Below, one piece after another: positions 43,126 to 48,294 of a DNA stretch of 48,294 bases; within the stretch, counting starts at the first letter, position 1; each line of letters opens with the position of its first letter. Under the pieces are notes generated by a model, which was given only the letters and a program-made list of their open reading frames with translations, was not told the origin of the DNA and searched no databases. Made by a program: the position numbers and the translations under genes. This DNA is from Candidatus Nanopelagicales bacterium (lineage in GTDB: Bacteria; Actinomycetota; Actinomycetes; S36-B12; GCA-2699445), in contig JAUYJT010000014.1 of NCBI GenBank assembly GCA_030700225.1, positions 1-48,294 on the forward strand, written 5' to 3'.

Positions 43126-43812
43126 TCACCAACGATGTTGCCAGCACTTCGTTCCCGGCCGGACCAGTCTGGAGCAGGGATTACCGGAACTAGTGGTGGC
43201 TCCACAACGGGACCATCTTCCCGCGGGTACTGCACGACTACCGAGGGCAACCACAGGTGGCTTCGTCTGGAGCGCGTGCCGGACCATTGCCTCGGCGTTG
43301 CGCCCCATCTCCCTCCCCAGATAGAGGTCTTCGAATACCTCCCGCGCCTGGTCCACCGACGTGAGCCCCATGGAGCGGACCAGGATGTTCACGTCATCCT
43401 GGTCCCTGATGTCCCTGGCGGCCAGTAGCTTCATGGCGAGCAGGTAGCGAGGGGACGCAATGAGAATCCGAAGGCCGCTGGAGGCGTCGGCGGGCTCCCG
43501 GAGCACGATCGCCTCCAGGTCCCCGCCCGGAACACCATCAGGGAGATAGTGCGACACAGCGACCTGGTTGTTCAACCAGCCCGGATCCAGTCGATGTCTC
43601 CTGGCAACCTCGTCCATCGCGTCGTAGATGGTCTCTTCAGGCCCGAATAGACCATCGACGTCATCGGTAGCCGAGCGATGGGCATACGTCAGCGTCATCG
43701 CAGCGCCACCGACGATGTACAGCTCCCCCAGGACATCCCGAGCGACCAACTCGTCGTTCAGCTCGTCCAGCAACGTCTCGATGGTGGCCGCGTCCAGCAG
43801 GTAGGAAGTCAT
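43126..43812 (-). CDS. Nucleotidyltransferase-fold protein with C-terminal zinc-binding tail (toxin candidate)
   Basis: A 228-residue protein. The nucleotidyltransferase-like pattern IVGGAAMTLTYAHRSATDDVD (about 33-53) supplies the GG and acidic D-x-D-type residues expected of AbiEii/MNT-like enzymes. ILIASPRYLLAMKLLAARDIRDQDDVNIL is the follow-on helix typical of this group. The last 30 residues carry CGATTSSGNPC and a later C-x2-H (KCWQH), a putative zinc-binding tail. Its start overlaps the stop of the HTH gene (ATGA), the usual antitoxin-toxin order. Such enzymes can inactivate tRNA or proteins; the target here is unknown. Confidence 0.72.
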   Translation of the reverse strand: MTSYLLDAATIETLLDELNDELVARDVLGELYIVGGAAMTLTYAHRSATDDVDGLFGPEETIYDAMDEVARRHRLDPGWLNNQVAVSHYLPDGVPGGDLEAIVLREPADASSGLRILIASPRYLLAMKLLAARDIRDQDDVNILVRSMGLTSVDQAREVFEDLYLGREMGRNAEAMVRHALQTKPPVVALGSRAVPAGRWSRCGATTSSGNPCSRLVRPGTKCWQHRW

Positions 43813-44354
43813 ACCGAGTCCAGGTTCCTACTGGAGAGGACGACCCGTCTTGCCTTGAACTCACCCGGAGTCTCGCGAAGGGCGACCGTTCGCAACTCCG
43901 GGGTGCAGATCCAGTGCCATCGGGCCAGGCGACTCCCAAGTCGCATGGCCCATGCGGGTGTTTCTAGACCGGCCTGCCGGGCTAGTCGTTCAGCCAGCGC
44001 GGAGATACAAGCGTCCCATAGCTCCGAGCGAGTAGTTCCCGGTTCCGCCAGGAAGAGATCTCGGTCCTCCGGGAGCTGGAGCCGGTGAAAGTGGGTGGTG
44101 GCCTGGGCCAGCAACCGGACCATCGCGGACTCAGATTCGTCCTCCCGGACCATCTTTCTGATCTGCGTCGCCAGAGCTGGCATCGTGAGATAGCGCCTGC
44201 TTCGGTACGAACTATCGCCCGGCAGCCTGGCTACCAGGCTGAGCCGGGAGCGGACTAGAGCTCCCTCCACCAATCTGCCAGATCGGTACGCCGAGACGTT
44301 GGACGGCGCCATGCCAGTGAGTTCCGCTACTCGTACCTGAGAAAGCACTTCCAT
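43809..44354 (-). CDS. HTH protein, probable antitoxin/repressor
   Basis: A 181-residue protein that begins with a helix-turn-helix, EVLSQVRVAELTGMAPSNVSAYRSGRL, an XRE/AlpA-like specificity helix that reads DNA. The rest is helical with no known motif (SAMVRLLAQATTHFHRLQLPEDRDLFL). Its ATG is directly preceded by an AT-rich inverted repeat containing the -10 box, an ideal autorepression site. Overlap with the nucleotidyltransferase gene supports a toxin-antitoxin pair. Confidence 0.7.
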   Translation of the reverse strand: MEVLSQVRVAELTGMAPSNVSAYRSGRLVEGALVRSRLSLVARLPGDSSYRSRRYLTMPALATQIRKMVREDESESAMVRLLAQATTHFHRLQLPEDRDLFLAEPGTTRSELWDACISALAERLARQAGLETPAWAMRLGSRLARWHWICTPELRTVALRETPGEFKARRVVLSSRNLDSV

Positions 44355-44382
44355 GTTATAAGTATACCGTGCTATCTATAAC
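44355..44382 (-). promoter_or_regulatory. Promoter/operator of the HTH-nucleotidyltransferase pair
   Basis: Inverted repeat GTTATAGATA...TATACTTATAAC on the minus strand, with GTTATA/TATAAC arms. It contains a TATACT -10 (44366-44361) placed seven bases before the ATG, so the mRNA is likely leaderless. The strongly AT-rich block stands out from its GC-rich surroundings. Binding of the HTH protein here is inferred. Confidence 0.6.
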
Positions 44383-44574
44383 TGTGGTGTCGGCAATGGA
44401 GAACTGGTTGTGTTGCGCAGCCAGGTTGATGACAGTGCAGCGGCCTGCTCGGTGGATGTCGCTGTCGTCGTGGAGGCCGACGGTGATCCTCGGTGGCGCG
44501 GGAGTCATCCAGGCGCCTTGGCCGTGGGTCTAGCCGACCTTCGCGGCATGGCCCTCTCCTCTGCGGTGACGCAA

Positions 44575-45141
44575 CTAGCCGGGGGCCGTTGGGGTTGCTC
44601 CCACCAGCGCAGCCGCGAACTCCTCAGCCTCCTGAAGGCTGTCAAACCCGTGCATTTCCAGCGCGCCACCGCTGACGGGCTCGCGGAATGGGAAGCTCGC
44701 CCTGACACGGCCGCTGGTCACAATGGATGCTTCGTTCTTCGGCGGCCGTAGATTCACCTGCCTGCGACTCGCTTCGCGCAAAGCGACTGCCCCCCGGCTA
44801 TCGAGACGAACCTCCACGACCGGTACCCCGTCCGCAGTAGTAGCTGCGGAAGCTGAGGCGACGTCAGCTTCCGTCACAAACGCGGGGCCCAGCCAAACCA
44901 CCACGCGCCCGCTCTCGTCGCATCCGGCGATTCGCCGATCCGGCGGCTGAGGTGTCAGGGTAACCACGCAGCCCAGTCGGGCTGCCTTTCTCAGGACCGG
45001 ACGAACCTGGAAGTCAGCCCGAGGCGCAGGAGGGCTCGGCTCCGGGACAGGAACCACCGAACATCCAGTGACGCCGCTCAACACGCCGACCACGCCTACT
45101 GCCACCGCATGTGTTCGTCGGCGCCCACCATGCCAACTCAT
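44575..45141 (-). CDS. Lipoprotein with a SecD P1-head-like domain
   Basis: A 188-residue secreted lipoprotein with signal AVAVGVVGVLSGVTGC (lipobox VTGC near residue 27) and a Pro-rich spacer. The domain reads FVTEADVASASAATTADGVPVVEVRLDSRGAVALREASRRQVN, then IVTSGRVRASFPFREPVSGGALEMHGFDSLQEAEEFAAAL. This matches the P1 head subdomain of the translocon protein SecD (the order V-A, G-P-x-V, LDSxGA, GxVxSxP, IxG, EA..LA). No SecD membrane spans are present, so it is a free-standing copy. ATG 45141 gives a proper signal peptide. The 220 bases between it and the HTH gene hold no gene I can support. Confidence 0.7.
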   Translation of the reverse strand: MSWHGGRRRTHAVAVGVVGVLSGVTGCSVVPVPEPSPPAPRADFQVRPVLRKAARLGCVVTLTPQPPDRRIAGCDESGRVVVWLGPAFVTEADVASASAATTADGVPVVEVRLDSRGAVALREASRRQVNLRPPKNEASIVTSGRVRASFPFREPVSGGALEMHGFDSLQEAEEFAAALVGATPTAPG

Positions 45142-45270
45142 CAACACCACCCATAGTGACGATTGCAGGACCGTTCATGGTACGCACAGCGCCTGCGATC
45201 AGGCCGGCACCAGGGCGTCCAGTGGCCCGATCTCCGCCTCGATCAGGCGGCGCCAAGGGCACCCAAACCC

Positions 45271-45801
45271 TCATCGCGCGGAGCCAACTTCGGCCCTGAG
45301 GCATCCCTCGTCCGGGTCCGGACGCGAGAGGGCCTTGGCGTCGATCCACGCGTACCCACGCCGTGTCGGTCCGTGAACGAACAGATGAGTCGTCAGCCCG
45401 GCGATGGTCTTCTCCAAACAGCGCGGCTCAGAGGACGCCGGATTCCATCCGCTCTTCTCCGCGTTCTCGGCCACCTGCCGCCTCAAGGACTCCCGGCTCC
45501 CCACGAAACGAAACACGACGTCCGGGTACACGTCAACGCAGAAGGAGAACATGCCAGCCGGGCCGCGTGCCTCCACCACGTCCGTGGCAGATCTGGGAAC
45601 CAGGCCCCTCAGGTCGGCCATCGAGGACTCCCAAGACTCGCCGGGCCAGCAGTCCTGGTCGTCCGAGACGAACGCAAAGCCAAGAGTGAACACCAAGTTC
45701 GCCATCCACACCGCGCCGACGGAGATGACAACGACTAGCACAGCCGTGACGACAGCCAACACGCTGCGAGGCAGCGATCTCCGCTCCCGGGGGGCTTTCA
45801 T
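45271..45801 (-). CDS. Single-span membrane protein, candidate immunity protein of the Rhs toxin
   Basis: A 176-residue protein with a basic N-terminus (KAPRERRSLPRS), one membrane span (about 14-42) and an extracytoplasmic C-terminal domain with four Cys (in QDCWPG, FSFCVDV, EPRCLEK and EGCLR) that could make two disulfides. No family is recognised. Its ATG overlaps the stop of the Rhs gene by four bases (ATGA), the standard position of the cognate immunity gene in polymorphic-toxin loci. The topology would suit neutralising a toxin on the outer face of the membrane. The immunity role is inferred from position only. Confidence 0.6.
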   Translation of the reverse strand: MKAPRERRSLPRSVLAVVTAVLVVVISVGAVWMANLVFTLGFAFVSDDQDCWPGESWESSMADLRGLVPRSATDVVEARGPAGMFSFCVDVYPDVVFRFVGSRESLRRQVAENAEKSGWNPASSEPRCLEKTIAGLTTHLFVHGPTRRGYAWIDAKALSRPDPDEGCLRAEVGSAR

Positions 45802-48294
45802 GTGTACCTCAGTGCGGGTGAGCAGCGGACAACCCGTCCCTTCTCCCCCCTGCTTCTACACCAGAACGACCTGATGGATTGGTCCCCATTCCAGGCCTGG
45901 TAGAACTCCTTTTGCGCAGCGTTGTACAGAATGTCCAACCACCATCGACCGATGCGGTCTGTCGCCTGGGCATTCTCATACTGGGTCCTCCGCACGAGAC
46001 GGTTGTTCCTCCTGTCCCTCCGCGAGTCACGCATCGCGGACTTGTTCCCCCGGTCCACCAGGCCCTCATGCGCGCCCGTGATTCGAGCTGTCCTCCATCG
46101 ACCGATCTGAGCCATCAGCATGAAGTTCCATATGAAGTGCCGACGCGCATTCTGAATGTTGCCGTCGCCCGGCTCTCTCTCTTCCAGGTAGTTCGTGATG
46201 TTCCTCGCGCTATTGCATTGCACGGCGCCTATCGACGCGCACGCGACAATCTCAAGCCACTCAGCCTGCCCGTCTAGGTCGTATTGATTGACCGGATCCA
46301 CAGGGTAGGTGTACGTGTTGGCGTTGCCGCCCCGGATGGGGTCTGTGGATAGGAATTGGCCGGTGTTGGGGTTGTACGGTCGGGCTCCCATTTGGATCAG
46401 TCCGGTGGCCTGGGAGGTGGGCCGCTGGTAGGCGCCGAGCCATCCGTAGCGGTCACCGCCGGACACATCGGTCGAAGCCGCACTGCCGGTGGGCTCGAGC
46501 GTGTTCGCTACGCCGCTGGTGCTGACGGTGTTGTTGATTGGGTGCCCGTAGGCGTCATACAGCTCCCAGGTGTCCAAGTCGAGGCCGTCTATCGTTCCGT
46601 CCCCCGCGCCGACCCTGGTACTGGTCTGATTGTCGGTCAGGGGCAGGGTGTTGGTGTTGTCGCCATGGGGACTCACCACGGGCACTACCCCGGTGGTGGT
46701 GGCGTCATCGCCGCTACCGGTTGTTGTCAGGATCGCCGCGACACCGCCGTCGATTCCGGGCAGCCACTGCGTCGTGGTCCCACCGGTGTCCGCGGCCCAC
46801 GTGGGCGAATCCGAGGCGTCGCCGTAATGCCTCGTGGTAACAGCGCTGTCGTTGGCCTTCCGTGCCTGAGCCAGGGCCTGTTTCGCTGTCTTGGCCTTGG
46901 CCTTGGTGACGGTGGTTTCGGTGGTCGTGTCCTGCCGGCCAATCGGATCCATACCGTATTGGCGCACCAGCCACGTGTCGGAGCCGGTGTCGAAACTGAT
47001 GCTGGACGCCACCGAATCATCCACGTAATACGTCTGGGTCACCGCGCCATCGTTCACCACTGGCGTCTCCACGCCCGGTAACGACGTCACCCTGCCCAGG
47101 GAGTCATAACCGTAAGTGAAAGCAGCGCTGCCGGTGACCTTGCCCGAACTGCTGGTCGTAGGTGTAGTCCCGGACACGATCTGCGCCATGGAGTTGAACA
47201 CCCGACTCGTGGTGTAAGTCTTGGCCGGTGTCGGGCAGTCCTTCACCGGATCAGCCTTCCAATCCACCCCTTTCGTGGTGCCCGTAGTCGTCGTGGGCCT
47301 GGTGGACTCAACCCCATACTCGAACTCCTCGGAAAGGCACGTGGATCCCAGCCACATCGACGCGCCCGTGAGGCGCCCCGCGTGGTCGTACTCGGCCACA
47401 GACCGCGAACCAGGCAAGTCACCATCGGCTTGTAGGGCACCGACCGTGGTGGTGTCCCGTACTCGGGCGCGGCCCAAACCATCGGTGGTTTGGGCGTAGC
47501 CGACGATCAAACCGTTCCCCGCCCCCAAAGACCGATCCCCAGAGGCGGCCGTTGTGTAGACAAGGGAGGACAGTGCCCCAGCGGCGTCGGTCTTGGCTGC
47601 GGACACCACACCGTTCAACTCGGTGACTGTGGGATCCTCGGCGGCGTCGTACGACACAGTGGAAGTGTCCGGCAAACCCGGGAGCTGATAGTCCGCGCCC
47701 GAAACCAGGCCCCTGTGGTCGGTGTCGGAGTTCCACGACCACTTCGTCGTAGTCAAACCATCCCCGGTGGTATCGGTGAACCCGCCAGCGTCATACGTCG
47801 TAGCCGAAGTGACCCCGCCCGCGTCGGTGTAAGACACCTCCCGGCCCCACGAGTCATAGCCGGTCGACACGCTCGCCGCCGGGTTACTCCCGGTCGCGGC
47901 GCTCGACGCGGAAACCGGCAAACCCGTGGCGGCGTCATAGCCGTAAGTGACCGCCGGAACCGCCTTGTCCGTCGATGTTCCACCGGTGACGGTGGTGCCG
48001 GTGGGTCTGCCCGCGTCGTCATAGGACACCGTCGTGGTGCGGGTGCCACCGTTGAACGTATCCACGGAAGCGGCTGGCTGGCCCAAAGTGTCATACGCCG
48101 AAACGGTGGTGATGTTCGACCCCGAACCCCCGCTGGGCGCGGCGGCCATCGCCGTGGAGCATTCCAAACCAGCCCACTCCGGATGCCCCACGCAGTCCCC
48201 GTTGGCGTTCGGGCCATAGAACGCCGAAACCGTGGTGCCGGCGTCGCCGCCGTCAGATCCGGGCTGGATCTCTTTGGTGGTGTTTCCGTAGGCG
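45798..48294 (-). CDS. Rhs-repeat polymorphic toxin (5' end beyond the window)
   Basis: At least 831 residues remain; the frame is open to the window edge, so the N-terminus and export signal are not seen. There are many YD/Rhs repeats, such as YDTLGQPAASVDTFNGG, YDDAGRPTGT, YGYDAATGLPVSAS and EYDHAGRLTGAS. The hallmark Rhs core end follows: MGARPYNPNTGQFLSTDPI, then YTYPVDPVNQYDLDGQ. After it comes a variable tip of about 155 residues with RRHFIWNFMLMAQIG, GAHEGL and DRRNNRLVRR, resembling DUF6973-type tips (conserved R-H-F, A-H-E and N-N). Rhs shells deliver C-terminal toxins against competitors. The tip activity is unknown. Confidence 0.85.
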   Translation of the reverse strand, partial: AYGNTTKEIQPGSDGGDAGTTVSAFYGPNANGDCVGHPEWAGLECSTAMAAAPSGGSGSNITTVSAYDTLGQPAASVDTFNGGTRTTTVSYDDAGRPTGTTVTGGTSTDKAVPAVTYGYDAATGLPVSASSAATGSNPAASVSTGYDSWGREVSYTDAGGVTSATTYDAGGFTDTTGDGLTTTKWSWNSDTDHRGLVSGADYQLPGLPDTSTVSYDAAEDPTVTELNGVVSAAKTDAAGALSSLVYTTAASGDRSLGAGNGLIVGYAQTTDGLGRARVRDTTTVGALQADGDLPGSRSVAEYDHAGRLTGASMWLGSTCLSEEFEYGVESTRPTTTTGTTKGVDWKADPVKDCPTPAKTYTTSRVFNSMAQIVSGTTPTTSSSGKVTGSAAFTYGYDSLGRVTSLPGVETPVVNDGAVTQTYYVDDSVASSISFDTGSDTWLVRQYGMDPIGRQDTTTETTVTKAKAKTAKQALAQARKANDSAVTTRHYGDASDSPTWAADTGGTTTQWLPGIDGGVAAILTTTGSGDDATTTGVVPVVSPHGDNTNTLPLTDNQTSTRVGAGDGTIDGLDLDTWELYDAYGHPINNTVSTSGVANTLEPTGSAASTDVSGGDRYGWLGAYQRPTSQATGLIQMGARPYNPNTGQFLSTDPIRGGNANTYTYPVDPVNQYDLDGQAEWLEIVACASIGAVQCNSARNITNYLEEREPGDGNIQNARRHFIWNFMLMAQIGRWRTARITGAHEGLVDRGNKSAMRDSRRDRRNNRLVRRTQYENAQATDRIGRWWLDILYNAAQKEFYQAWNGDQSIRSFWCRSRGEKGRVVRCSPALRYT

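What the first reader, a model, noticed from the sequence alone, without database searches (positions are those of the whole stretch)
44575..45141. Free-standing SecD P1-head domain as a lipoprotein beside a toxin locus
The domain found in the extracytoplasmic part of the SecDF translocon occurs here alone, lipid-anchored, 129 bases after the candidate immunity gene. It might assist export or folding of the large Rhs protein, act as a decoy for SecD, or be an unrelated cell-surface protein.
Basis: partly seen in the sequence, partly recalled or inferred. Interest (0 to 1): 0.5.

Follow-up and report, generated by a model that had tools for sequence, protein, structure and literature searches.

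The report
SecD-head lipoprotein beside Rhs toxin genes
A small predicted surface lipoprotein built from one domain of the protein-export motor SecD sits as an extra gene behind two toxin loci of an uncultivated actinobacterium; the domain is certain, and a role in toxin protection is possible but unproven.

Summary
Window 44575-45141 (-) encodes a 188-aa predicted lipoprotein whose mature domain is a SecDF P1 head: Pfam PF22599 E 3.9e-9; model matches SecDF at Z 15.1, rmsd 2.0 A over 118 residues. The rest of SecD is missing.

The genome holds one SecD and one more free-standing copy (92% identical), also behind an Rhs toxin tip and an immunity candidate. Between the two loci the Rhs core, a 37-base piece of the tip and the lipoprotein's mature domain are similar in DNA; dN/dS is about 0.25.

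The neighbouring tip is probably a Lipocone (Wnt-like) toxin. Listed immunity proteins of such toxins are all membrane or lipoproteins (PMC12419801), but each locus has a nearer immunity candidate.

Elsewhere the family looks toxin-free: 14 copies found in other genomes are not near Rhs cores; 20 other DUF6973 regions lack it.

Best reading: accessory or orphan immunity-type lipoprotein that recruited the P1-head fold (0.36), about level with a toxin-independent passenger (0.35). Export-helper has little support, SecD decoy none beyond the domain.

The parts
44575..45141 (-). Free-standing SecDF P1-head lipoprotein, 188 aa (signal peptide about 1-26, lipid-anchor Cys 27, linker to about 41, P1-head domain about 42-182)
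   Evidence: PF22599 E 3.9e-9; model matches SecDF Z 15.1, rmsd 2.0 A, 118 residues; lipobox read by eye
44575..45072 (-). DNA block 94.6% identical to the paralogue on contig C23 (L009 1566-2063): essentially the mature domain; signal peptide and both flanks gave no match
   Evidence: blastn; codon comparison; Fisher
45271..45801 (-). Nearest candidate immunity protein, 176 aa, one N-terminal hydrophobic segment, four Cys after it (by eye)
   Evidence: BLASTP to a 293-aa protein on C24 (7.8e-9) and to a 171-aa lipoprotein-like protein behind a DUF6973 Rhs toxin in genome G234 (6.6e-4); no Pfam family
45798..46274 (-). Rhs toxin tip: DUF6973 domain, probably of the Lipocone (Wnt/SAA-like) kind, with R-H, E, D, N residues shared by 19 aligned tips
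   Evidence: PF22322 3.8e-6, at its cut-off of 27 bits; alignment; profile to PDB 9uu0 1.1e-14 and Wnt-3a 0.0049; model Z 12.1 to 9uu0 and 7.7 to Wnt
46278..46680 (-). Rhs core segment shared at 90% DNA identity with contig C23 and 89% with C24 (there 46288-46680)
   Evidence: TIGR03696 2.6e-11
45798..48294 (-). C-terminal 831 aa of the Rhs protein; gene runs off the contig end
43126..44354 (-). Downstream HTH-like gene (43809-44354) and DUF6036-like nucleotidyltransferase gene (43126-43812); no counterpart next to the C23 copy; probably not part of the unit
   Evidence: PF19502 1.4e-4, below cut-off; no DNA similarity to C23 there

Best explanation
Shown: a gene with a lipoprotein-type signal peptide whose mature part is one actinobacterial SecD-type P1 head without the P1 base, membrane part or SecF, so it cannot be a proton-driven motor. 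Inferred: it is held by its lipid on the outer face of the cytoplasmic membrane and works as a passive binding module for an extracytoplasmic polypeptide. Inferred, less sure: it belongs functionally to the Rhs/Lipocone toxin islands, as an accessory or orphan immunity-type protein left from an earlier toxin tip, and intercepts Lipocone tips outside the membrane, much as BamE-like immunity proteins are thought to have emerged from an envelope-assembly factor (PMC12419801).
For: Domain and fold. Both free-standing copies in this genome are the third gene after an Rhs tip and an immunity candidate. Lipoprotein conserved while tip and immunity differ; pairwise dN/dS about 0.25, lower than expected if one copy drifted freely (inference). 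Both neighbouring tips are DUF6973, and no other of 166 genomes of the order exceeds that family's cut-off. The tips look Lipocone-like, and the immunity proteins listed for Lipocone toxins are all TM or lipoproteins (PMC12419801 section 30); at 8 of 19 other DUF6973 loci printed the next gene looks like one (by eye). In C23 the stretch just before the lipoprotein resembles the end of a DUF6973 tip (score 49, 2 of 400 shuffles as high for the gap itself; 57 and 0 of 400 with 35 more bases; 0 of 400 genomic pieces reach 49), as expected of a displaced toxin module; this test was devised after seeing the sequence.
Against: Both loci have a nearer candidate that resembles a published immunity type: the four-Cys 176-aa protein here, and a 106-aa protein with about four hydrophobic stretches (by eye) in C23. 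Immunity proteins usually change with their toxin; here the tips are 33% identical and the lipoproteins 92%. A third tip of this kind (C24) and the C72 Rhs end have no P1 head in the stretches searched. 0 of 20 other DUF6973 regions have one. Relatives elsewhere are not Rhs-linked. The gap before the window copy shows no toxin remnant (304 of 400 shuffles as high). The Lipocone assignment is itself probable, not proven (see membership test). Purifying selection does not say for what.
Confidence: 0.36

Rival explanations
1. Toxin-independent surface lipoprotein: a member of an actinobacterial free-standing P1-head family with its own (binding or sensing) function, carried as a passenger in the variable flank of Rhs loci and copied there along with the Rhs core.
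For: Family occurs elsewhere without Rhs: aldo/keto reductase - lipoprotein - dnaE in 5 genomes, zwf/patatin side in G006, SemiSWEET-like/DinB-like side in G020, behind an ECF-sigma-like gene as a TM-anchored form in G015 (functions read by eye); none of 14 near an Rhs core. Tree puts the window pair in a supported set of 12 free-standing rows, apart from SecD. The ligA flank in relatives G001 and G004 has neither Rhs nor P1 head, so the island is accessory.
Against: 2 of 2 free-standing copies in this genome are at Rhs loci; the copies look constrained; the dnaE-side copy is absent here, so the only copies kept are the toxin-linked ones.
Confidence: 0.35
2. Export or folding aid: the lipid-anchored P1 head holds the Rhs polypeptide as it leaves the Sec translocon, in cis with the Rhs gene and independent of the toxin tip.
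For: The SecD P1 head is reported to bind translocon-engaged substrate (PMC7793623, passages, citing Furukawa 2017, which was not held). A factor shared by different tips should stay constant while tips vary, as seen.
Against: No linkage to Rhs cores in the other genomes with both features: G014, G019, G020, G334. Two of four Rhs ends of this genome lack it in the stretches searched. Without base, TM part and proton path it cannot pull (established SecDF knowledge).
Confidence: 0.18
3. Decoy or regulator of the host SecD, for example blocking SecD of a competitor or of the cell.
For: Only the domain resemblance.
Against: It is predicted to be anchored in the producer; it is only about 36% identical to the cell's own SecD head; SecD heads sit on one side of a branch (91/92 support) with the free-standing ones outside, so the copies are not recent SecD fragments.
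Confidence: 0.02

Closest known systems
SecDF P1 head subdomain (Pfam PF22599; Thermus SecDF 3aqo, 5yhf)
   Same: Whole mature domain: profile above cut-off, fold Z 15.1 over 118 residues, plus the Cys-loop-Cys lead segment seen in actinobacterial SecD
   Different: No P1 base, no TM helices, no SecF partner; lipid anchor instead; the 'LDG' of SecD is T-S-G here
Free-standing P1-head lipoproteins of related actinobacteria (G014, G015, G017, G019, G020; the records matching G015 and G019 are labelled Candidatus Nanopelagicales)
   Same: Lipobox (start of G017 not settled), Pro/Thr/Ser-rich linker, Q-L-R-P-V start (Q-V-R-P-V here), two Cys, P1 head; 30-38% identity
   Different: Those lie between an aldo/keto reductase-like gene and dnaE (G020 also has a second copy elsewhere), not at Rhs toxins
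[quoted passage not shown] PMC12419801, section 30)
   Same: Membrane-anchored and extracytoplasmic; follows a (probably) Lipocone-tipped Rhs gene; fold shared with an envelope-biogenesis factor
   Different: P1 head is not among the folds named in that section; not the nearest gene; does not vary with the toxin; no neutralisation shown

Membership tests
SecDF P1-head domain (PF22599) | Profile score above the curated cut-off | tested here: met
   36.8 bits against 27
SecDF P1-head domain (PF22599) | P1-head fold | tested here: met
   Z 15.1, 2.0 A, 118 residues to 5yhf; best unrelated fold Z 3.0
SecD / SecDF translocation factor | P1 base, TM helices and partner SecF | tested here: not met
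   188 aa with signal peptide, linker and head only; full SecD/SecDF profiles match far below cut-off, e.g. 20.9 bits against 244.4
Bacterial lipoprotein | Signal peptide with lipobox ending in Cys | tested here: met
   ...LSGVTGC and ...VVVTGC in the two copies, read by eye; no predictor run
Bacterial lipoprotein | Lipidation and surface location | not testable with these tools
   Needs labelling or fractionation
Immunity protein of a Lipocone toxin | Membrane-anchored or lipoprotein, extracytoplasmic | tested here: met
   Predicted from sequence; rule from PMC12419801 section 30
Immunity protein of a Lipocone toxin | Gene directly after the toxin gene | tested here: not met
   Second gene after the tip in both loci; only a short, post hoc toxin-like remnant precedes it in C23
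Immunity protein of a Lipocone toxin | Varies together with its toxin | tested here: not met
   Tips 33% identical, lipoproteins 92%
Immunity protein of a Lipocone toxin | Neutralises or binds the toxin | not testable with these tools
   Needs experiment or a complex prediction
Lipocone superfamily, for the neighbouring Rhs tip | Sequence relation to known members (Wnt, SAA) | tested here: met
   Weakly: profile of 19 tips hits Wnt-3a at 0.0049 and SAA-3 at 0.023; its strong hit (1.1e-14) is 9uu0, a Bacteroides T6SS effector that no call shows to be classed as Lipocone
Lipocone superfamily, for the neighbouring Rhs tip | Helical Lipocone fold | tested here: inconclusive
   Z 12.1 to 9uu0 (3.8 A, 139), 7.7 to Wnt (4.5 A, 129), 5.5 to SAA (4.2 A, 94), unrelated rows from 4.5 down; the tool warns that Z under about 13 can be chance for helical models; Foldseek had nothing at E <= 0.001, best row 9uu0 at 0.23
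Lipocone superfamily, for the neighbouring Rhs tip | The family's active-site residues | not tested
   A, R, H, E, D, N are invariant in 19 of 19 aligned tips, but I did not match them to the positions given in the paper
Lipocone superfamily, for the neighbouring Rhs tip | Assignment to the Min-Wnt family within it | tested here: inconclusive
   Hits include both Wnt and SAA chains; the paper does not use the name DUF6973

The most novel reading that the evidence does not exclude
The SecD P1-head fold has been recruited as an extracytoplasmic, lipid-anchored immunity or guard protein of Rhs/Lipocone (Wnt-like) toxins, kept constant while toxin tips and nearest immunity genes are exchanged around it.
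Probability: 0.29. Interest if true: 0.62.

Novelty: new variant of a known kind. Interest (0 to 1): 0.4.

Why it matters
It shows that the substrate-binding head of the SecDF motor exists as a separate, predicted lipid-anchored protein with a lineage of its own in actinobacteria, in lipoprotein, TM-anchored and sigma-factor-side forms. That offers a simple system for asking what the head binds when it cannot pull. If the toxin link is functional, it would add a new fold to the membrane-side defences against Wnt-like Lipocone toxins.

Tried and rejected
Close relatives of the window protein in named genomes, plasmids, phages and IMG/VR contigs: none found by those searches. A phylum-wide search (396 genomes) with A1 at E <= 1e-28 found only this genome. 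PADLOC gave no hit for five window proteins and PHROGs none for the lipoprotein. No sigma-70-like promoter in 44300-46300. No toxin remnant in the gap before the window copy.

Idea 'free-standing heads mark polymorphic toxins': rejected as a rule. Idea 'recent fragment of SecD': rejected by the tree, which used 19 SecD heads of the many found; long branches (G006, G377, G240) make fine placement unsure. Idea 'P1 head accompanies DUF6973 only': weakened, since the C24 tip, which Pfam does not score, shares the motif but has no P1 head. No VIA-align row other than SecDF and the holo-translocon exceeded Z 3.0 for the P1-head model.

Literature: 'SecDF P1 head' 0 papers, 'DUF6973' 0 papers. Among the rows shown (12 of 169; 12 of 113; 4 of 4; 12 of 32; 8 of 15) I saw nothing on a free-standing P1-head lipoprotein (listings and abstract starts only). 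PMC12419801 main text has no 'SecD'; I saw its passages and section 30, not its source-data tables. That NCBI names such proteins 'SecDF P1 head subdomain-containing protein' is recalled, from no call. Orphan toxin/immunity modules behind Rhs genes are recalled from general knowledge.

Odds: after rechecking one search's warning on helical models I lowered the best explanation from 0.38 to 0.36 and the novel case from 0.30 to 0.29.

Full report
What is there. Window 44575-45141 (-) is a 188-aa ORF with a lipoprotein-type signal peptide, a Pro-rich linker and one domain. Residues 78-180 match Pfam SecDF_P1_head at 3.9e-9, above cut-off; the two significant PDB sequence hits are Thermus SecDF. 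With a 34-row alignment (A3) AlphaFold gave pLDDT 86.2, pTM 0.73. Foldseek and VIA-align place it on the SecDF P1 head: 5yhf Z 15.1, 2.0 A, 118 residues, 30% identity; the best unrelated fold has Z 3.0. The aligned range, 42-182, covers the mature domain including the two-Cys lead segment that actinobacterial SecD also has. Full SecD profiles score far below their cut-offs, so this is a P1 head, not a SecD.

Copies in the genome. The genome (2.6 Mb, 85 contigs; records matching two genomes of its order are labelled Candidatus Nanopelagicales) has three PF22599 genes: one SecD (open frame 577 aa) and two free-standing ones. The second, on C23, is 92% identical over residues 20-188 and also follows an Rhs core end, a toxin tip and a small putative membrane protein. 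DNA similarity between the loci is limited to the Rhs core (90%), 37 bases of the tip (84%) and 498 bases from about the lipobox to the stop codon of the lipoprotein (94.6%); signal peptide, immunity gene and outer flanks gave no match. Over the last 160 codons there are 14 synonymous and 10 non-synonymous differences, dS 0.116, dN 0.029, Fisher p 0.0013. Two further Rhs ends, C24 (whole 4.0-kb contig) and C72 (10 kb held), show no P1 head. C23 and C24 begin at the same base of the Rhs core, so the assembly does not tell which Rhs body carries which tip; the distal flanks differ, so I take them as separate loci.

The neighbouring toxin. The tips of C14 (the window) and C23 match DUF6973 (3.8e-6, at the cut-off of 27 bits, and 9.5e-7). 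In 166 genomes of the order only this genome exceeds the cut-off; in 394 of the class 18 do, this one included. Nineteen aligned tips, the C24 tip among them, share invariant A, R, H, E, D, N positions. A profile of them hits the Bacteroides T6SS effector structure 9uu0 at 1.1e-14 and, weakly, Wnt-3a (0.0049) and serum amyloid A-3 (0.023). The model (pLDDT 79) aligns to 9uu0 with Z 12.1, Wnt 7.7 and SAA 5.5, unrelated rows from 4.5 down; the tool warns that Z under about 13 can be chance for helical models, and Foldseek alone gave no hit at E <= 0.001. Wnt, SAA and several bacterial toxins belong to the published Lipocone superfamily (PMC12419801: passages, section 30 whole). I therefore call the tip probably Lipocone. 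[quoted passage not shown] The window's 176-aa protein has four Cys after its hydrophobic segment and is related to a C24 protein (7.8e-9) and to a lipoprotein-like protein behind a DUF6973 Rhs toxin in G234 (6.6e-4); my four-row alignment keeps only one Cys in an invariant column, so the match to that published type is a suggestion. The C23 neighbour (106 aa) has about four hydrophobic stretches by eye.

Relatives of the lipoprotein. Searching 166 genomes of the order and 394 of the class returned mostly SecD itself. I picked free-standing candidates by open-frame length and context: besides the two here, 14 genes in 11 genomes (G006, G014, G015 twice, G017, G019 twice, G020 twice, G223, G237, G240, G334, G377). 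This is a lower bound: both lists were cut, one search scored at most 8 candidates a genome, and second or further matches in genomes such as G076, G214, G261, G402 and G444 were not looked at. Five of the 14 lie between an aldo/keto reductase-like gene and dnaE (G014, G015, G017, G019, G020); G377's is near a dnaE-like gene too. Two are TM-anchored forms (G015, G019), one of them behind an ECF-sigma-like gene; G334's seems to include part of the P1 base (gene functions read by eye). One of the 14, G006's, does not reach Pfam's cut-off (15 bits). None is near an Rhs core: 5 of the 12 genomes searched have Rhs cores, and outside this genome these are on other contigs or, in G334, about 78 kb away; several candidates lie on contigs of 3.6-14 kb, which limits this, and other toxin kinds were judged by eye only. 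Conversely 20 regions round other DUF6973 matches (13.8-18 kb, 4.6-9 kb to each side; one match below cut-off) hold no P1 head at E <= 10, while 15 of 17 control regions were found, the two misses being C24 and C72; 10 of those 15 are rows of the model A1, the other five are not. In a tree of 34 heads the 19 SecD heads are one side of a branch (91/92), and the window pair falls in a supported set of 12 free-standing rows (97/91), TM-anchored ones included; the program warns that the join with G006 may be a long-branch effect. A phylum-wide profile search at E <= 1e-28 found only this genome.

How it may work. Without base, TM helices and SecF it cannot be a motor; the domain is reported to bind translocon-engaged substrate in SecD (PMC7793623, passages only). 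So a passive extracytoplasmic binding module is the likely mode (inference). Three roles fit: immunity-type guard, independent surface protein, export or folding aid. For the guard: position in two islands, constraint between the copies, Lipocone toxins needing extracytoplasmic protection, partners at other DUF6973 loci that often look like lipoproteins or membrane proteins (8 of 19 printed loci by eye: L135, L136, L137, L139, L140, L151 lipoprotein-type, with the starts of L136, L137 and L139 inferred from their likeness to L140; L143, L144 membrane-type; 11 gave no clear partner), and a toxin-like remnant just before the C23 copy (in one search the C23 gap in one frame scored z 6.7 against the C23 tip, two further of 18 comparisons had z about 2.4; control; post hoc, none in the window gap). 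Against it: a nearer immunity candidate in both loci, no co-variation with the toxin, and Rhs-free contexts elsewhere. I put the guard a hair ahead because both copies seem to be kept at their toxin loci, but it is about level with the passenger reading.

Island. Upstream of ligA in relatives G001 and G004 lie mnmA-type and other genes (by eye), and a profile scan of the stretches held from G001, G002, G004, G006 and G007 found no P1 head there; those of G002 and G007 are only 2.6 and 3.4 kb. So the window's Rhs-lipoprotein segment is accessory.

Verdict. A free-standing P1 head is a known kind of domain use; its place as a conserved third gene in Rhs toxin islands is a new variant, seen in one genome only.

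Noticed in passing
window 45798-46274 (-); L009 404-931; L055 350-874: The Rhs tips here are probably Lipocone (Wnt/SAA-like) toxin domains; the C24 tip shares the motif but is missed by Pfam's DUF6973.
   Followed up: yes
L009 2181-2208, L055 1414-1441, G000:C72:14420-14447, G000:C30:8838-8865: A 28-nt near-identical repeat 118 bases after the C23 lipoprotein, 12 bases after a C24 immunity candidate, about 2 kb beyond the C72 Rhs end, and once near an Abi-like gene (by eye); possibly a transposon end or small mobile element. Not found in the window.
   Followed up: partly
L055 905-2443: Two candidate immunity genes follow the C24 tip; the second is related to the window's 176-aa protein and looks like an orphan.
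   Followed up: partly
L052 8431-9629: An ECF-sigma-like gene is followed by a TM protein with an outer P1-head domain, an anti-sigma-like layout that suggests a sensor use of the domain.
   Followed up: no
window 43126-44354 (-): HTH-like gene plus a DUF6036-like nucleotidyltransferase gene, reminiscent of a toxin-antitoxin or abortive-infection pair; below Pfam cut-off and no PADLOC hit.
   Followed up: partly
G000 contigs C14 (window end), C23, C24: C23 and C24 start at the same Rhs-core base that corresponds to window 46680; the shared Rhs body is probably collapsed in the assembly.
   Followed up: no
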